Shown: positions 58,201-64,000 of the stretch, in pieces
Numbering within the stretch: the first letter of the stretch is position 1
Layout: every line of letters begins with the position of its first letter
Assembly: GCA_023974075.1 (NCBI GenBank)
Contig: CM043801.1
Span: 23,851,236 to 23,915,235 of the forward strand
DNA length: 64,000 nucleotides
Direction: 5' to 3'
Source of the DNA: Chaenocephalus aceratus
Taxonomy: Eukaryota; Chordata; Actinopteri; Perciformes; Channichthyidae
Notes under the pieces: generated by a model
What the model was told of the DNA's origin: nothing
Seen by the model: only the letters and a program-made list of their open reading frames with translations
The model's database searches: none
Program-made: the position numbers and the translations under genes

Positions 58201-61200
58201 TGCAGACCCAAGCATAATAGCGGATCTCGCCGGTGTCCTTCTTAGAGTCATGCCACTGATTACCTCACTGTTCCATTACTACAGCAAGGACACAGCCCAG
58301 CCGATGGGACAGCTGGACAGGGACACACACAAACTTCAAGCCTGATCTGTATGAGGGAGATAACACTAAAAGGGAGAACTTGAGGATTTTGTAATCATTC
58401 AATATAATTTACTCAGCCAATAGGAGCCGAGCACGTTGGTGAATATATGGGTATCAATGAGATGGAAATTAAGCCGAGTGGACTGCAAATTGTCACAAAT
58501 GTCACATTTCTGCATCACAAGGATAACACCGTTTCACGTGCATAAAAACAATAATTACAACAAAACACCATATTAGACTAACCTTTGTTTAAATGGCTGC
58601 ATTTCATTGTGTGTCAGGAATGGTATGACCCCAAAGGAAACTGTAATGTGTGGAGTCTGTTAGTTCACATGCTGATGCAGGCTAGTTTAGAAAGATGGAA
58701 GGTTCCCGATACCTCCTCCTGTTTTGACAGCAGTTCAAGGCACAGATGGAGAGCAGCACAGGTTTCACTGGAGAGCTCACTGGTCTCTTTGGCTTTCAGT
58801 AGAAGTGGGGCAGGCAGTGCTGTTTCAAAAACAAAAGAAAAATAATACATGTTCAGTGCAGATACATTGGGCTACAACTGAGTTAGCATTAATTAATGTG
58901 TTGTTTTTGTCACAAACATTGGAGCAGTTGTGTGATTTAATCATTCTGGAGCAGTTGAAACAGTCTGTCCCTGAGAACATTGCAATATATATTAATGAAC
59001 ATGAAGTCACATATCCTAGGGAGGCAGCAGTACTGGCTGATGAGTATGTGTTGACGCACAGGCGCATCTTTGGTGAGCGTAATGATAGGAATGAATCTCG
59101 GAAAGCAGGATCTTTGTCCCCAACGTTTGCACAGCATCCTAATGGCACAAGCAATGCAAAGGTGTGTCATTATTGCCATCAACAGGGTGATTGGAAAAAA
59201 GAATGTCCTTTGCTAGAGGGGGAAAGCAACCATTTTCATGTGAAGTCAGTTGGTTTGGCTACAACTGTTCATAATCCCAGAGTTGGTGAAACAGAAGTTT
59301 TGGCTCCATTGCAAATGCAGGGTAAGCCAATTGATATCTCAGAGGTTGACTCGGGTTATGCTTCGTTTATGTCTGACGGTTTCGTAACCCTAGTTGGGAG
59401 TGACAAGAAAGTTCAAGTCAGGATTTTGAGGGACTCGGGCGCTTTGAATACTTTGGTGAGGGAGGCCATCTTGCCTTTTTCTCCAGATTCAAACATGGGG
59501 CGCTGTGTTCCAGTTAGAGGGATTGGTCTGCAAACCATTTCTGTGCCTGAGCATAAACGGTTTCTGTCCTGTGATTTGGTCCAGAGAGAAGTGGAGGTTG
59601 GTGTTCGTCCAGAGTTGCCCGTGACTGGAGTGGAAATCATTTTGGGAAATGACCTGGCAGGTGGTCGTGTTTGGCCAGATCATGCAAAGCCATTCAGGGG
59701 TGACAAAATAAACATTGCAGGAAAGAGTGTTCATGTTAGAGGCGAGGACTGGTTTTGTCCGGATAAGTGTGGAATGATGAACTTTGCTAGAAGAAGCAGT
59801 TGTTACAGATGTGGCAGGAAGAAAACCATGAGGGCACAGATGATGAAAGCTGGAGGAACAGATAGTTGGCGATGGCTGGGAAGAGCAGGTACTTCAGTGT
59901 AAATGATTGGAAGTGCAAAACATGTGGCAATGTCAATTGGGCTAGAAGGTCAGAGTGCAACATTTGTAACACACGGAAGTATGCAAAAGAGAGCTACTTC
60001 TTTGGGTAAGGTCGGGCAGGCAAGGGGAGCTTCGTCCCATTCTTCTTGAAGTTTTGGCCGTACAGGCATTCCCTGTTTCGTCCACTAAGCAGCAGTAGTT
60101 GCTTTTCCTGGGGTTAGGCTGTAATGATTGCGGGTTTTGTGCAAATTTCGGTAGTCACTTCATGTACCTTTTTTCATAGTTCCTTATTTGCCTAGTATCA
60201 CTTTTGATAGGCTTATAATGCAGTTTTTATGTGCTCTTAAACGTGCTACTCGGATTTATGAATTGGAAGAAAATGTTGTGTCTAATGTTCTTGTTTTGTT
60301 TCAGGATCTGAGGTGATACCTCATTCTTAAGGGGGAGGTGTGACGGCCCCTAGGCCTTAGACTCAGGTCCCTGGTTAGCCACTCCCCAAATCAGGAGAGA
60401 TTGCTGACACCTAATTTGGGTTGACTGCTCAGCTACAAGTATGGGTGCCTGAGCAGTCAGACTCTCTCTCCTCTTGGGTTGCTTGGCTCTACTGGACCTT
60501 GGTTTGTTTGTTTTTGCTTTATATACTGCTGCATGTTCACACACCCACACACTACACACATTACTGATTAACTGACTTCATTGTTAACTTAGTTTCTTTA
60601 AATAAATGCACTTTAATTGGACATTAATCATGTGTGGTCTCCTTCTTTTGTCCGTCCTTGAGCCAGGGCGTGACAATATGTCAGAAAATAGGGTTAAACA
60701 AATCACAGTGGTGTCTACAAGACCAACAAGCTAAAGATTTGCTCATTCAATAAAACAGATTTATGTTTTATGTGTCCATGCTAAAAGATCAATTAAAGAG
60801 TGAGGGGTTAGGTCACTGTGTCGAATAGCAAAAGGCTAAACGACTCGTGACATTTTATATCCATGCCTATTTGTGACCCCGTCATAAAGGTTGAGCATGT
60901 TTATCAACTCAGAAGGTCAAGCGCTGTGGTTCTCAACCTTATCGAGTTGCACCTCCCCCGCAAACAATGATTAGATAAAAGTTGGAAAAGACGTCACTAA
61001 AATGTTACCTTCTTTATCGTTCTTTCCACTCACATTTATCCTAAAGCCCCTTGAAAGGACCGACACCCAGGTAAGTAAATCGCAAGGTTAAGGTTTCATC
61101 TCACAAAATAGTTTTTTTTAATTCGTTTTTCTATCCATTTACTAAATAATCAATTATCAAATCATTTCAGCACTAGGATGAAATTATCGGAAATAAAAGG

Positions 61201-64000
61201 ACACTGAATTAACAACAATAATACAGGAACAATTCCAGGACTCCTACCACTGTTCTCCTCATTCTTCACCATTGAGAGAAATATTGACACTTCACTCTCC
61301 AATTTCTGCTGGGAAGCGTTGGCTGCCTGCAAGAGCAGAAGACAAAAGAGACACTCACTTATTGGAATCCTCTTCCTTAAAAATAGCGCTTCCTTCCCAC
61401 TGCCACCTTATAAAACACCTGATTAAAAAAGGTCTGACATTTATTTTACCTGAAGGGCTTGTGACAGATTCCTCACTGTTTCTTCAGCACAACCATTGGC
61501 ATCGATGATCAATTCTTCTTGGGTGCAGTGGCGAGTGCTGTAGGATGAATGTGCCTCAAAAGCATCTAACCATCTCTAAGTGCACAAATATCAGAAATAT
61601 TTACAAATGTCCACCCTTTCGGATTCACTTAGACCAGGGGTGTCCAAACTACGGCCCGGGGGCCAAATGCGGCCTGCGGACCATTTTGATTCGGCCCTCA
61701 GCAAATAAAAAAAGTATAATGAAATATGGCCCACAAAAAGGAAACTTGTGCTTGTCTTATATTGTACTTCTTAAATGTAAAAATATATTACACAGTAGTA
61801 TTCATGTGTCAATAAGACCACTTTTCAAATAAATTCAGTCAATTCAAGTTGGAAACATTTTCTAACATATCTTTGATAAGAATAAAGCCCAATAACTTCT
61901 TTATATAACAAGGTTGAAATACACCCTTCCTATGTCTCCTTTTTATAATCAATCTGAGGCTTCTGTTTTAAGGGATGAGCTGCCAACACTCACAAGCATA
62001 ATTTTGCCAACTTATAACTGAACTTATGAGGCAATATACCTCCAGTGAGTGGCCCAGCCCTTCGTATATTTTTCTGTACGTGTCCCTCGGTGAAAAAGGT
62101 TTGGACACAACTGACTTAGACAAATCAGTCAGATTGTTCAGAGAAGAGATATTGCATTAGCACAGAAGGTGAATATCAACTCACTTTTCTTGTTGCCACT
62201 GAATCAGTCTTTGAGGAGACCTTGAAATAATGTACAGTGTCATCAAAACACTTAAGCATGAAGAAGCAATGATCCCATGGTTTGACCTAGAATGACACAA
62301 TTAAATTACTTACAATCACTCTTGCTGCACAATCTGTCAAACATCACCATGTCATCACAACGGAAACATCCAAGGGGCATTCTTGTATAGTCATGAATGT
62401 TCAATCAATTACTTACCATGCAGTAGGCTTTTGTTAGAGACTTACACCCTTGTTTTCTGACACCAGCCAGGGCATCAGCCCTGAAAAAACAAATGAGAGA
62501 GCACATAGACACACTGTATAATAAAACTGAACTAATTGACCAACAGTACACATGTAGAAGCCGTTTAAAGTTCCAGTTTCCCTGAATGCTTTGGAAACTA
62601 CTGATGTCGGCATCTCCAAAAATATTTATTTGGTGAAAATTGGATTTACTTTTATTACAGCCACTGCAGGCAATAAGGCATCGTCTGATTAAATGTACTA
62701 AAACACAGAGCCAATCAAGGATAGCAGGAGCAGCTAAAGAGACATTTCTACCATGACAAACAGTAGCATACATAATGTACTAAAAACTATACTATACATA
62801 CTATATATTTTGTATCTAAACAATTGGCATACATAAAGTTATCTTACTTCTTGGGATACCAGGAGAGCGTTCCATCCTCAATGACCACCCAGTGGGATCG
62901 CCATCCAAGAAATCGTGAACTCTGTCAGAGACATGTGGAGTCAAATCAGAAACTATTTTGCAAAAGTAGAAGATATAAATGGTTCAATATATTATAGAAC
63001 ATATAGGTTTGAATATATTTTTTAATCCGTTTTGATAATATTCAAAATAAACTGACAGATGACACAAGTCATTATATACAAAACAAAGAATAAAAAGGGT
63101 TTTGAGAAATTTCTTAAATATAAAATAATGCTATTGTGTGGCAGAATGTATTGTCTTCTGTTTGCGATTGTAGTAATGTGTTATTTATTATTTGCATGTA
63201 CAGCACTTTGGCTAAAATGTGCTATATCAATAAAACCAAATTTTATTTGATAATAAGAAAAAAGTAAAGTCTAAATGTGTCTAAATCAAATGTGTCTGAA
63301 AAGAATCATTGCCTGACATATTGGAAGTAGAAAAAGAATACACTTCAACATCTGGGTACCTTCCAAAGAGGGCCTTCAATCTTCTTCACCCCACTGCTCT
63401 CATCCTTTGTGGAGAAAAAATAATAACAGGCTGATTGACAGGCTTGAAGAGGTTTTGTTAAGACCAGACACACTCAACTCAGTTTTCCTTTTGTATTACA
63501 GTAAAACCTGCATCATGTCAGAAGTTTATACATTTAAGTGTTCTTAGTAGACAAGCACTAGTTTTTTCTTCATCACAATGACTAAGCAATGCTCTGCAGT
63601 GAAGCTGTGCCAATTACAGTATATTACACATTGAAGAAAATACAAGGACGGCTGACTTGCAAGGCTTTTCTCCACAGCGACCAGACCTCAAGTGAACACA
63701 TTTAGAAATATATGAAAGAGGAGAGTGAACAAATATAGTTGTGTGGACCTTTATCTTGGCCCAGAGTAAGATAGCAATAAGGAGAAAAATACAAACACCT
63801 AATAAGGTGCTAGAAATAATTAATTTAGACTTGTAGTCAGAAATTCCCTCGTGGATAACCCAATTTTGAAATGTTTAATCTTCTGGGAGATGTGAAGGAA
63901 CTTAGTTATTTTTACTGGATATTTGTTTATTAAACTGAGATTTTTCCTAGCTAGATATTGCCAAATGGTTGTGAAAGAGGAGAGAGGATCACAAAAATGC
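46807..64000 (-). CDS. OSBPL1A: Oxysterol-binding protein-related protein 1, long form (5' partial)
   Basis: Twenty coding exons on the minus strand, 734 residues in the window, from the PH domain to TAA 46809-46807. In transcript order: 63404-63360, 62921-62848, 62480-62417, 62286-62185, 61575-61450, 61326-61248, 58819-58713, 53938-53770, 52418-52232, 50562-50487, 49798-49664, 49511-49414, 49299-49117, 49035-48928, 48639-48550, 48330-48204, 48121-48005, 47614-47491, 47391-47301 and 46909-46807. Order: PH domain, coiled coil, FFAT-like motif, sterol-binding ORD. ORP1L sits on late endosomes, senses cholesterol and makes ER contacts through VAP; the short form ORP1S is cytosolic/nuclear. The ankyrin repeats expected for ORP1L must lie beyond 64000. 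The C-terminus ([17 protein letters not shown], ending NLPEIY) and EQVSHHPP identify the family firmly. Confidence 0.95.
50563..52231. other. OSBPL1A intron without further recognised content
   Basis: 1.67 kb between coding exons 52418-52232 and 50562-50487. No repeat family or open frame with family resemblance was found on either strand. Confidence 0.5.
53770..58819 (-). CDS. OSBPL1A: OSBPL1A exons: coiled coil and FFAT-like motif
   Basis: Exons 58819-58713 ([19 protein letters not shown]) and 53938-53770 ([20 protein letters not shown]) encode a helical, heptad-rich linker. The second ends in [10 protein letters not shown], the FFAT-type VAP-binding motif: an acidic tract, then an aromatic pair and Asp-Ala. 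An intron of phase 1 interrupts the motif right after its core. The 4.8-kb intron 53939-58712 shows no further convincing exon. A LTR retroelement lies directly upstream (in transcript sense) of the 58819 acceptor. Confidence 0.88.
53939..58712. other. Large OSBPL1A intron
   Basis: 4.8 kb between the two coiled-coil exons. Non-repetitive on inspection. A stretch at 57939-58000 (minus) ends in CAG|GTACAA and could be a small unannotated or non-coding exon, but its frame has stops. Nothing else supported. Confidence 0.45.
58905..59902 (+). pseudogene. Retroelement gag-protease remnant fused in frame to ZRANB2-like finger 1
   Basis: An open frame (TAA at 59900-59902) runs through [28 protein letters not shown] (SCAN C-terminal half), then [14 protein letters not shown], a zinc knuckle whose His position is Asp. 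Next is LRDSGA at 59429-59443 (retropepsin active site, DSG) and [11 protein letters not shown], the usual C-terminal protease motif of fish Gypsy elements. From about 59714 it changes to [34 protein letters not shown] and MMKAGGT, matching the N-terminus and first RanBP2-type finger of ZRANB2. The open frame extending upstream into 58724-58904 is antisense to an OSBPL1A exon and is not part of the element. Confidence 0.8.
59902..60009 (+). pseudogene. ZRANB2-like second RanBP2 zinc finger, in a shifted frame
   Basis: In another frame than the gag-protease-finger 1 segment: [19 protein letters not shown], then CNTRKYAK and TAA at 60007-60009. This is the W-x-C-x2-C-x3-N-x6-C-x2-C RanBP2 pattern and is nearly word for word finger 2 of ZRANB2. 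The linker between fingers (about 59857-59890) carries the indel that breaks the frame. In finger 1 one Lys codon is missing between the first two cysteines. In ZRANB2 the fingers bind AGGUAA-type 5' splice-site RNA. Confidence 0.8.
60339..60675 (+). repeat. 3' long terminal repeat of the retroelement
   Basis: 337 bases starting TGTGACGG and ending GCGTGACA, that is TG...CA with short inverted ends, immediately after a polypurine tract. Inside are a TATA-like TTTATATA near 60518-60526 and AATAAA at 60601-60606, as expected for a promoter/polyA-bearing LTR. The flank to the right is ATATG; with no 5' LTR the target-site duplication cannot be checked. Confidence 0.8.
61248..63404 (-). CDS. OSBPL1A: OSBPL1A exons: PH domain and following helix
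   Basis: Exons 63404-63360 (ending EGPLWK), 62921-62848 ([19 protein letters not shown]), 62480-62417 ([16 protein letters not shown]), 62286-62185 ([16 protein letters not shown]), 61575-61450 ([16 protein letters not shown]) and 61326-61248. The first five form a pleckstrin homology fold, including the beta-strand pattern and the C-terminal helix with its conserved Trp. In ORP1L the PH domain contributes to phosphoinositide and late-endosome binding. The intron between 61575 and 62185 is about 80% one hAT insertion. Confidence 0.9.
61635..62113. mobile_element. hAT-type non-autonomous transposon with perfect 8-bp target duplication
   Basis: Inverted ends CAGGGGTGTCCAAACT and GTTTGGACACAACTG, with subterminal GGCCCGGGGGCC. 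It is flanked on both sides by ACTTAGAC (61627-61634 and 62114-62121), an exact 8-bp duplication that defines a hAT insertion. 479 bp, no transposase ORF. It lies in the OSBPL1A intron between 61576 and 62184. Confidence 0.85.
63405..64000. other. OSBPL1A intron at right window edge
   Basis: About 600 bases with no exon seen on the minus strand. The ankyrin-repeat exons of the long form should lie further right. Confidence 0.5.

What the first reader, a model, noticed from the sequence alone, without database searches (positions are those of the whole stretch)
59395..60009. Retroelement gag-protease fused in frame to a ZRANB2-like zinc-finger segment
The sequence shows LRDSGA and EIILGNDLAGG (retrotransposon protease) continuing without a stop into GKSVHVRGEDWFCPDKCG...MMKAGGT, followed in a shifted frame by NDWKCKTCGNVNWARRSEC. 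These match, from memory, the N-terminus and both RanBP2-type fingers of ZRANB2, a splicing factor that reads 5' splice-site RNA. Homology seems to begin at the ZRANB2 start region, and the two fingers adjoin without an intron, as in a cDNA capture. I know of no described LTR element carrying an RNA-binding RanBP2 finger pair.
Basis: partly seen in the sequence, partly recalled or inferred. Interest (0 to 1): 0.9.

Follow-up and report, generated by a model that had tools for sequence, protein, structure and literature searches.

The report
Fish retrotransposon carrying stolen splicing-factor fingers
A family of mobile elements in what is likely a fish genome carries, fused to its own capsid and protease and in the place where its relatives carry integrase, the two zinc fingers of the host splicing factor ZRANB2 without the host gene's introns; the fingers were most likely copied from a messenger RNA and would help the element choose which RNA to package.

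Summary
Window 58917-60675 is a 5'-truncated copy of a non-autonomous Gmr1-like (SCAN-type Gag) Ty3/gypsy element. Its Gag-protease frame runs into the ZRANB2 finger pair. The frame is broken here but open in 8 of 20 sister copies fetched (609-615 aa).

The own genome (1.06 Gb) holds at least 40 places with the PR-finger segment, the window included. Complete elements are about 3.4 kb: two LTRs, primer-binding site, Gag-PR-ZF1-ZF2, 3' UTR, no polymerase genes. Of 14 two-LTR copies, 11 have 4-5 bp target duplications; median LTR divergence is 0.7%.

The host zranb2 gene splits the same segment with three introns; the element has none, and its homology starts in the host 5' UTR, so the source was spliced RNA. 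A decayed copy keeps a longer zranb2 stretch.

Mobilisation in trans is inferred. RNA selection by the fingers is less certain: finger 2 is nearly unchanged, element-host dN/dS is 0.16-0.19, and four AGGTAA motifs recur in all 14 two-LTR copies; but recent copies show no constraint on the fingers and finger 1 is altered. Literature searches listed no description.

The parts
58917..60675 (+). 5'-truncated copy of the LTR element (5' LTR, leader and start of gag missing)
   Evidence: blastn against sister copies; 13 of 14 copies with both LTRs are 3.36-3.45 kb long
58917..59400 (+). 3' part of gag: end of the SCAN-type capsid domain and degenerate zinc knuckle (59165-59206); right bound approximate
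   Evidence: Pfam SCAN E 1.4e-5 on residues 75-124 of the ORF; letters checked
59360..59680 (+). retropepsin-type protease domain (D-S-G at 59432-59440, ILGNDLAGG near the end); approximate bounds
   Evidence: sequence; the model of P0002 is matched by retroviral and related aspartic proteases, none at E 0.001 or less
59688..59994 (+). zranb2-derived segment: piece of 5' UTR, then coding exons 1-4 without introns; finger 1 about 59747-59820, finger 2 about 59902-59976; frame broken in the linker between them
   Evidence: BLAST of sister copy L011 to the host gene L041; PDB matches of the window's own fingers
59714..59716 (+). position of the former zranb2 start codon, now ATT
   Evidence: alignment with host exon 1; letters checked
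60010..60338 (+). 3' untranslated region ending in a polypurine tract (about 60328-60338)
   Evidence: shared by sister copies; letters checked
60339..60675 (+). 3' LTR, TGTGACG...CGTGACA, 337 bp
   Evidence: matches both LTRs of sister copies; 220 candidates of the first look genome-wide, 40 scored

Best explanation
This is a copy of a non-autonomous Gmr1-like LTR retrotransposon family whose single long protein is capsid-protease fused to the two RanBP2-type fingers of the host splicing factor ZRANB2; the finger segment was likely acquired from spliced zranb2 mRNA by template switching during reverse transcription, and the fingers likely act as an added nucleocapsid that selects the element's own RNA. 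Shown: the fusion, the missing introns, the two-LTR multicopy structure with target duplications, the open frames, and the absence of polymerase domains in the two ORFs scanned. Inferred: enzymes are borrowed in trans from unfused Gmr1-like elements of the same genome, one of which shares the LTR tip, a G-rich polypurine tract and the primer-binding site. Least certain: that the fingers bind AGGUAA sites in the element's leader and gag RNA and so favour packaging.
For: Fusion and copies. LTRs, perfect TSDs in 11 of 14 two-LTR copies (two of the 11 share flanks), median LTR divergence 0.7%. Spliced source: host introns of 673, 99 and 212 bp absent, homology from the 5' UTR; older copy L070 continues through the exon 4-5 junction and ends in an AAGAGAG repeat at which the modern form is shorter. 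No polymerase domains in the 609- and 615-aa ORFs of L009 and L022; two unfused relatives scanned have SCAN-Gag followed by integrase. A young unfused element (C24, 1503-aa frame, identical 309-bp LTRs; its domains not scanned) shares TGTGACG, a G-rich PPT and the PBS TGGGGGCTCG. Fingers: dN/dS to host 0.16-0.19 in 8 copies; fixed S:N 22.5:17.5 against 13:81 among 39 copies, Fisher p 1.6e-6; finger 2 of L009 keeps all four Cys and NVNWARR. Motifs: four AGGTAA at corresponding positions in 14 of 14 two-LTR copies, against 0.9-1.0 in shuffles of three copies and 0 in 8 of 10 unfused control loci.
Against: Among the 8 intact copies the finger segment shows pN/pS 1.13, against Gag 0.49 and PR 0.63, so no recent constraint is visible (few sites; Gag against fingers not significant, p 0.32). 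Finger 1 has lost a residue between its first two cysteines and changed positions that are the same in nearly all 15 ZRANB2 aligned. The host branch adds synonymous changes, so dN/dS overstates constraint. AGGTAA ranks only 31st-84th of 4096 hexamers in three copies, two of the ten control loci have two or three of their own, plain GGT is not enriched, and the copies are related, so their shared sites are not independent. Most of the C24 LTR is unlike that of the finger family. The finger model has low confidence (pLDDT 51.5). No expression or binding data.
Confidence: 0.62

Rival explanations
1. Passenger: the fingers are translated with Gag-PR but do nothing; the element is an ordinary deletion derivative mobilised in trans and the finger frame survived by youth and chance.
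For: Neutral-like change among recent copies; finger 1 altered; in simulation a branch with 30-40 neutral substitutions stays free of stops in 20-30% of cases.
Against: The segment is old (dS about 0.85), yet within the 92 codons the frame of intact copies differs from the host by only one 3-nt deletion. If the element branch were neutral, 17-20 of 22.5 fixed synonymous changes would have to lie on the host branch (p 0.0001-0.009 for an equal split; this assumes that the donor was this host's own lineage). Finger 2 is nearly unchanged.
Confidence: 0.33
2. The zranb2 segment entered as a LINE-made processed retrocopy that landed in the pol region of an element and was later trimmed.
For: Homology starts in the 5' UTR and the older copy L070 runs on into a later exon, as a retrocopy would.
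Against: By eye I saw no poly(A) tract or target duplications around the segment. The PR-side junction falls on AGCCA, where the codons of the parent lineage (WPD-x-x-R/K-P) and the host UTR coincide, which suits template switching.
Confidence: 0.2
3. The fingers act on the host: they occupy 5' splice sites of element or host RNA and shift splicing, for example keeping the full-length element RNA unspliced.
For: AGGUAA is 5'-splice-site-like and four sites lie in the element RNA; ZRANB2 is a splicing factor with ssRNA-binding fingers (PMC8034646, passages).
Against: The RS and acidic regions that ZRANB2 carries after the fingers are missing, and the fusion partner is a capsid protein. Not tested directly.
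Confidence: 0.15
4. Single-copy assembly artefact.
For: None found.
Against: At least 40 places on many contigs and a separate ENA protein record.
Confidence: 0.01

Closest known systems
Gmr1-like Ty3/gypsy retrotransposons
   Same: SCAN-type Gag, zinc knuckle, retropepsin; LTR tip, G-rich PPT and PBS shared with one unfused element. Gag-PR about 70% identical to unfused relatives P0003/P0004; Gag up to 54% to other elements of this genome
   Different: Integrase and polymerase domains absent; a host RNA-binding finger pair in their place
Maize Bs1 and other plant LTR elements with transduced host genes (PMC13317346, passages)
   Same: Host gene pieces inside an LTR element, forming a hybrid reading frame
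   Different: Animal Gmr1-like element; the captured piece is an RNA-recognition module kept in frame with Gag-PR and repeated as a family of at least 40 places
Acutely transforming retroviruses (recalled)
   Same: Intron-less host sequence replaces pol and is fused to Gag; helper needed
   Different: Germline retrotransposon; captured splicing-factor fingers, not a growth gene
Host ZRANB2
   Same: Fingers 1 and 2 and the linker, 63-67 of 92 residues identical in 8 copies
   Different: No introns, no start codon of its own, no acidic/RS C-terminus; finger 1 altered

Membership tests
Gmr1-like Ty3/gypsy element | SCAN-type capsid domain in Gag | tested here: met
   Pfam SCAN E 2e-13 in the ORFs of L009 and L022
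Gmr1-like Ty3/gypsy element | LTRs TG...CA, 4-5 bp target duplications, PBS and PPT | tested here: met
   11 of 14 two-LTR copies with a perfect duplication; PBS TGGGGGCTCGTC in the three copies looked at (assignment to tRNA-Pro recalled)
Gmr1-like Ty3/gypsy element | pol with integrase upstream of reverse transcriptase | tested here: not met
   no pol domains in the two ORFs scanned; integrase follows Gag in relatives L043 and L050; position of their RT not tested
LTR element with transduced host gene (Bs1-like) | host coding sequence inside LTR-bounded copies, without introns | tested here: met
ZRANB2 gene or processed pseudogene | stand-alone zranb2 transcript unit or poly(A)-tailed retrocopy | tested here: not met
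   segment lies inside the Gag-PR frame and LTRs; no poly(A) seen by eye
TRIM or LARD (non-coding non-autonomous LTR element) | no coding capacity | tested here: not met
   609-615 aa open frames in 8 of 20 copies
ssRNA-binding RanBP2-type finger | four Cys plus the aromatic, Arg and Asn contacts of ZRANB2 finger 2 | tested here: met
   finger 2 of L009 keeps C69, C72, C83, C86, N74, N76, W77, R79, R80, N84 of alignment A2; which residues touch RNA is recalled, PMC8034646 passages give their number. Finger 1 is altered and was not shown to qualify.
ssRNA-binding RanBP2-type finger | binding to AGGUAA RNA | not testable with these tools
   needs protein and RNA

The most novel reading that the evidence does not exclude
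An LTR retrotransposon replaced its polymerase genes with a sequence-specific host RNA reader fused to Gag, and its RNA carries matching AGGUAA addresses in the leader and gag, so that particles built by this parasite-of-a-parasite pick out its own RNA and starve the autonomous elements it depends on.
Probability: 0.35. Interest if true: 0.9.

Novelty: new variant of a known kind. Interest (0 to 1): 0.78.

Why it matters
It is a natural animal case of a retroelement capturing a host RNA-recognition module by way of a spliced transcript and spreading it as part of its structural protein. It makes a concrete question testable: can a retroelement change its RNA packaging specificity by borrowing a host RNA reader? 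Finger and motif are both known, so binding can be measured directly. It also mirrors the other known traffic, in which the SCAN domain of host zinc-finger proteins came from Gmr1-like Gag (PMC3257199, a passage of its reviewer report citing Emerson and Thomas 2011).

Tried and rejected
Assembly artefact: rejected. Unrelated repeat protein as a better match to the fingers: rejected. Autonomous form with fingers: none seen. Gag matches fall into 72-100% and 54% or less, from 121 of 1602 candidates scored. By comparing coordinates by eye, nearly all of the upper group are finger loci; a few short or deleted ones, such as C2076 and C13:27718379, could not be classified. IMG/VR scan: nothing. Region-limited protein search: only P0002 again, of 8 candidates. 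Structure of the finger part: not usable. Fold search of the whole model: proteases and capsids, none at E 0.001 or less. Plain GGT and paired GGT: not enriched. Never answered: a search with the 3' UTR (not repeated) and one with the leader DNA, so a partner sharing those parts was not looked for genome-wide. Papers PMC2667063 and PMC3209298 are not held.

Rows dropped: the 39-copy count used 39 of the 44 loci aligned; L064, L066, L067, L069 and L070 were left out for short alignment. Of the 20 loci brought in by the searches repeat fetched copies and were skipped. Some known places (for example C2414, C17:20845692, C23:20902549 and one of the two C76 places) were not fetched. L011 and L013 share flanks, and other pairs have near-equal scores, so some copies are likely assembly or segmental duplicates.

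Full report
What is in the window. The ORF 58691-59902 holds the 3' part of a Gag with a SCAN-type domain, a zinc knuckle whose His is now Asp, and a D-S-G protease. It runs straight into a RanBP2-type finger and ends at TAA 59900-59902. Finger 2 follows in another frame to a stop at 60007-60009. Then come a 3' UTR, a polypurine tract and an LTR, 60339-60675. The 5' LTR, leader and start of gag are missing; homology to sister copies begins near 58917.

The fingers are those of ZRANB2. Finger 1 finds 1n0z (ZNF265) first, E 3e-10; finger 2 finds 2k1p/3g9y (ZRANB2), E 4e-15, with 57.7 bits; the next match, 27.1 bits, is finger 1 of the same protein. A protein search with the PR-finger part of P0002 gave 475 matches; the 120 listed are 63-75% identical and mostly named ZRANB2 of fish and other vertebrates. 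P0002 residues 428-521 align with zebrafish ZRANB2 residues 1-95.

It is a family. The segment 59395-60009 has 40 places in the own genome, the window included (61 candidates, 40 scored); the other 39 are 88-96% identical. A ZRANB2 protein search finds further copies. I fetched 20 of the 39. Fourteen of the 20 have both LTRs; 13 of these are 3.36-3.45 kb long and L018 is 4.3 kb. Eleven of the 14 are flanked by perfect 4-5 bp duplications (my reading of the flanks printed), two of them (L011, L013) sharing the same flanks; L016, L023 and L024 are not. LTR divergence is 0-3.2%, median 0.7%: recent integrase-type insertions. Eight of 20 copies have one frame of 609-615 aa with Gag, PR and both fingers. 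In two of these (L009, L022) Pfam sees SCAN, a weak zinc knuckle and RanBP fingers, and no polymerase domain. P0002, an ENA protein from a 3344-nt contig of unstated origin, is 93.6-97.7% identical to the eight ORFs.

The source was spliced RNA. The host gene lies at C4:31354987-31358123, minus strand (fetched). Within the captured part it has introns of 673, 99 and 212 bp; the element is continuous across all three junctions. Homology begins in the host 5' UTR: host AGCCACTCAGTGTTAACACCACAAACATG, element AGCCATTCAGGGGTAACAAAATAAACATT, the start codon having become ATT. Unfused relatives P0003/P0004 match the element up to WPD-x-x-R/K-P, that is, to the same AGCCA, so the junction could be a short-homology template switch; this is inference. 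A decayed copy, L070, keeps zranb2 sequence across the exon 4-5 junction and then the element's 3' UTR. The modern form is shorter, as if by deletion between two AAGAGAG repeats. So the capture was longer at first and was cut back to the finger pair.

Partners. Gag of this family matches the rest of the genome in two clear groups: 72-100%, nearly all of them finger loci by their coordinates, and 54% or less, unfused Gmr1-like elements (121 of 1602 candidates scored). Two unfused relatives were scanned; both carry integrase after Gag (H2C2 in L043 and L050, rve in L043). One element on C24 has a 1503-aa frame (domains not scanned) and two identical 309-bp LTRs, so it is young. It shares TGTGACG at the LTR start, a G-rich PPT and the PBS TGGGGGCTCG with the finger family, with weak similarity in the leader, while most of the LTR differs. 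It or its kin could supply enzymes in trans; this is inferred.

Do the fingers do anything? For: dN/dS between element and host is 0.16-0.19 in 8 copies, with dS about 0.85. Differences fixed between host and 39 copies are 22.5 synonymous to 17.5 nonsynonymous, whereas differences among copies are 13 to 81 (p 1.6e-6). ZRANB2 is almost invariant in this part in the 15 vertebrate sequences aligned, so synonymous changes on the host branch lower the ratio. Even so, an equal-rate neutral element branch would leave an unlikely split (p 0.0001-0.009), unless the donor was another lineage. Finger 2 keeps its four Cys and NVNWARR in L009; finger 1 has lost a residue between Cys 1 and Cys 2 and changed several others. 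The RNA of all 14 two-LTR copies carries AGGTAA at four corresponding positions, one in the leader and three in gag, the offsets agreeing within small indels except for the first site of the longer L018; L022 has a fifth (offsets compared, not aligned). In shuffles of three copies 0.9-1.0 is expected, and 0, 3 and 6 of 300 shuffles reach the observed count. Of ten unfused loci of about 3.3 kb, related among themselves, eight have none, one three and one two; the two C24 end pieces have none. The window copy, being truncated, has none. Against: among the 8 intact copies the fingers show pN/pS 1.13, Gag 0.49, PR 0.63, though the site counts do not differ significantly (p 0.32). AGGTAA is 31st-84th of 4096 hexamers, the copies are related, and four patterns were tried: AGGTAA and GGTAA exceeded the shuffles, GGT alone and paired GGT did not.

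Organism. The record is unnamed. The host zranb2 5' end translates (my reading) as SEPLSVNTTNMSGKSF, identical to that of Pogonophryne albipinna P0025, so I take it for a notothenioid fish; this is inference. The element keeps CGR where this host has CGS, which fits a capture older than that host change, or another donor.

Literature. Searches for ZRANB2 with retrotransposon, Gmr1 with SCAN, host gene capture in fish, Bs1, RanBP2-type finger with gag, notothenioid gypsy elements and template switching list no paper whose title or abstract start describes this element; I read listings, and passages of PMC3384923, PMC4131045, PMC13317346, PMC8034646 and PMC3257199. The library holds open-licence papers only, and RepBase was not available, so an unnamed entry there is possible.

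Noticed in passing
L070 (C13:11310600-11311400): Decayed older copy with a longer zranb2 stretch across the exon 4-5 junction, showing that the capture was later trimmed.
   Followed up: partly
L072/L073 (C24:5549400-5556200, ends only): Young unfused Gmr1-like element with two identical 309-bp LTRs and a 1503-aa open frame.
   Followed up: partly
Own genome: Several LTR matches do not lie beside any listed finger copy (for example C1:20783804, C17:31159585): likely solo LTRs.
   Followed up: no
L011 and L013; C370 and C2414; the two C76 places: Pairs with shared flanks (the first) or near-equal scores (the others), likely segmental duplicates or unmerged haplotypes.
   Followed up: no
window 62847-62918, minus strand: Exon-like stretch SRFLGWRSHWVVIEDGTLSWYPKK with weak matches, several of them PH-domain proteins (E 0.03-0.13), so the element seems to lie in or beside a minus-strand host gene with a PH domain (oxysterol-binding-protein-like, recalled).
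   Followed up: partly
L021, L022, L027: A subfamily with changed residues beside the Cys of both fingers (CVMMN, CDNVN), spreading recently.
   Followed up: no
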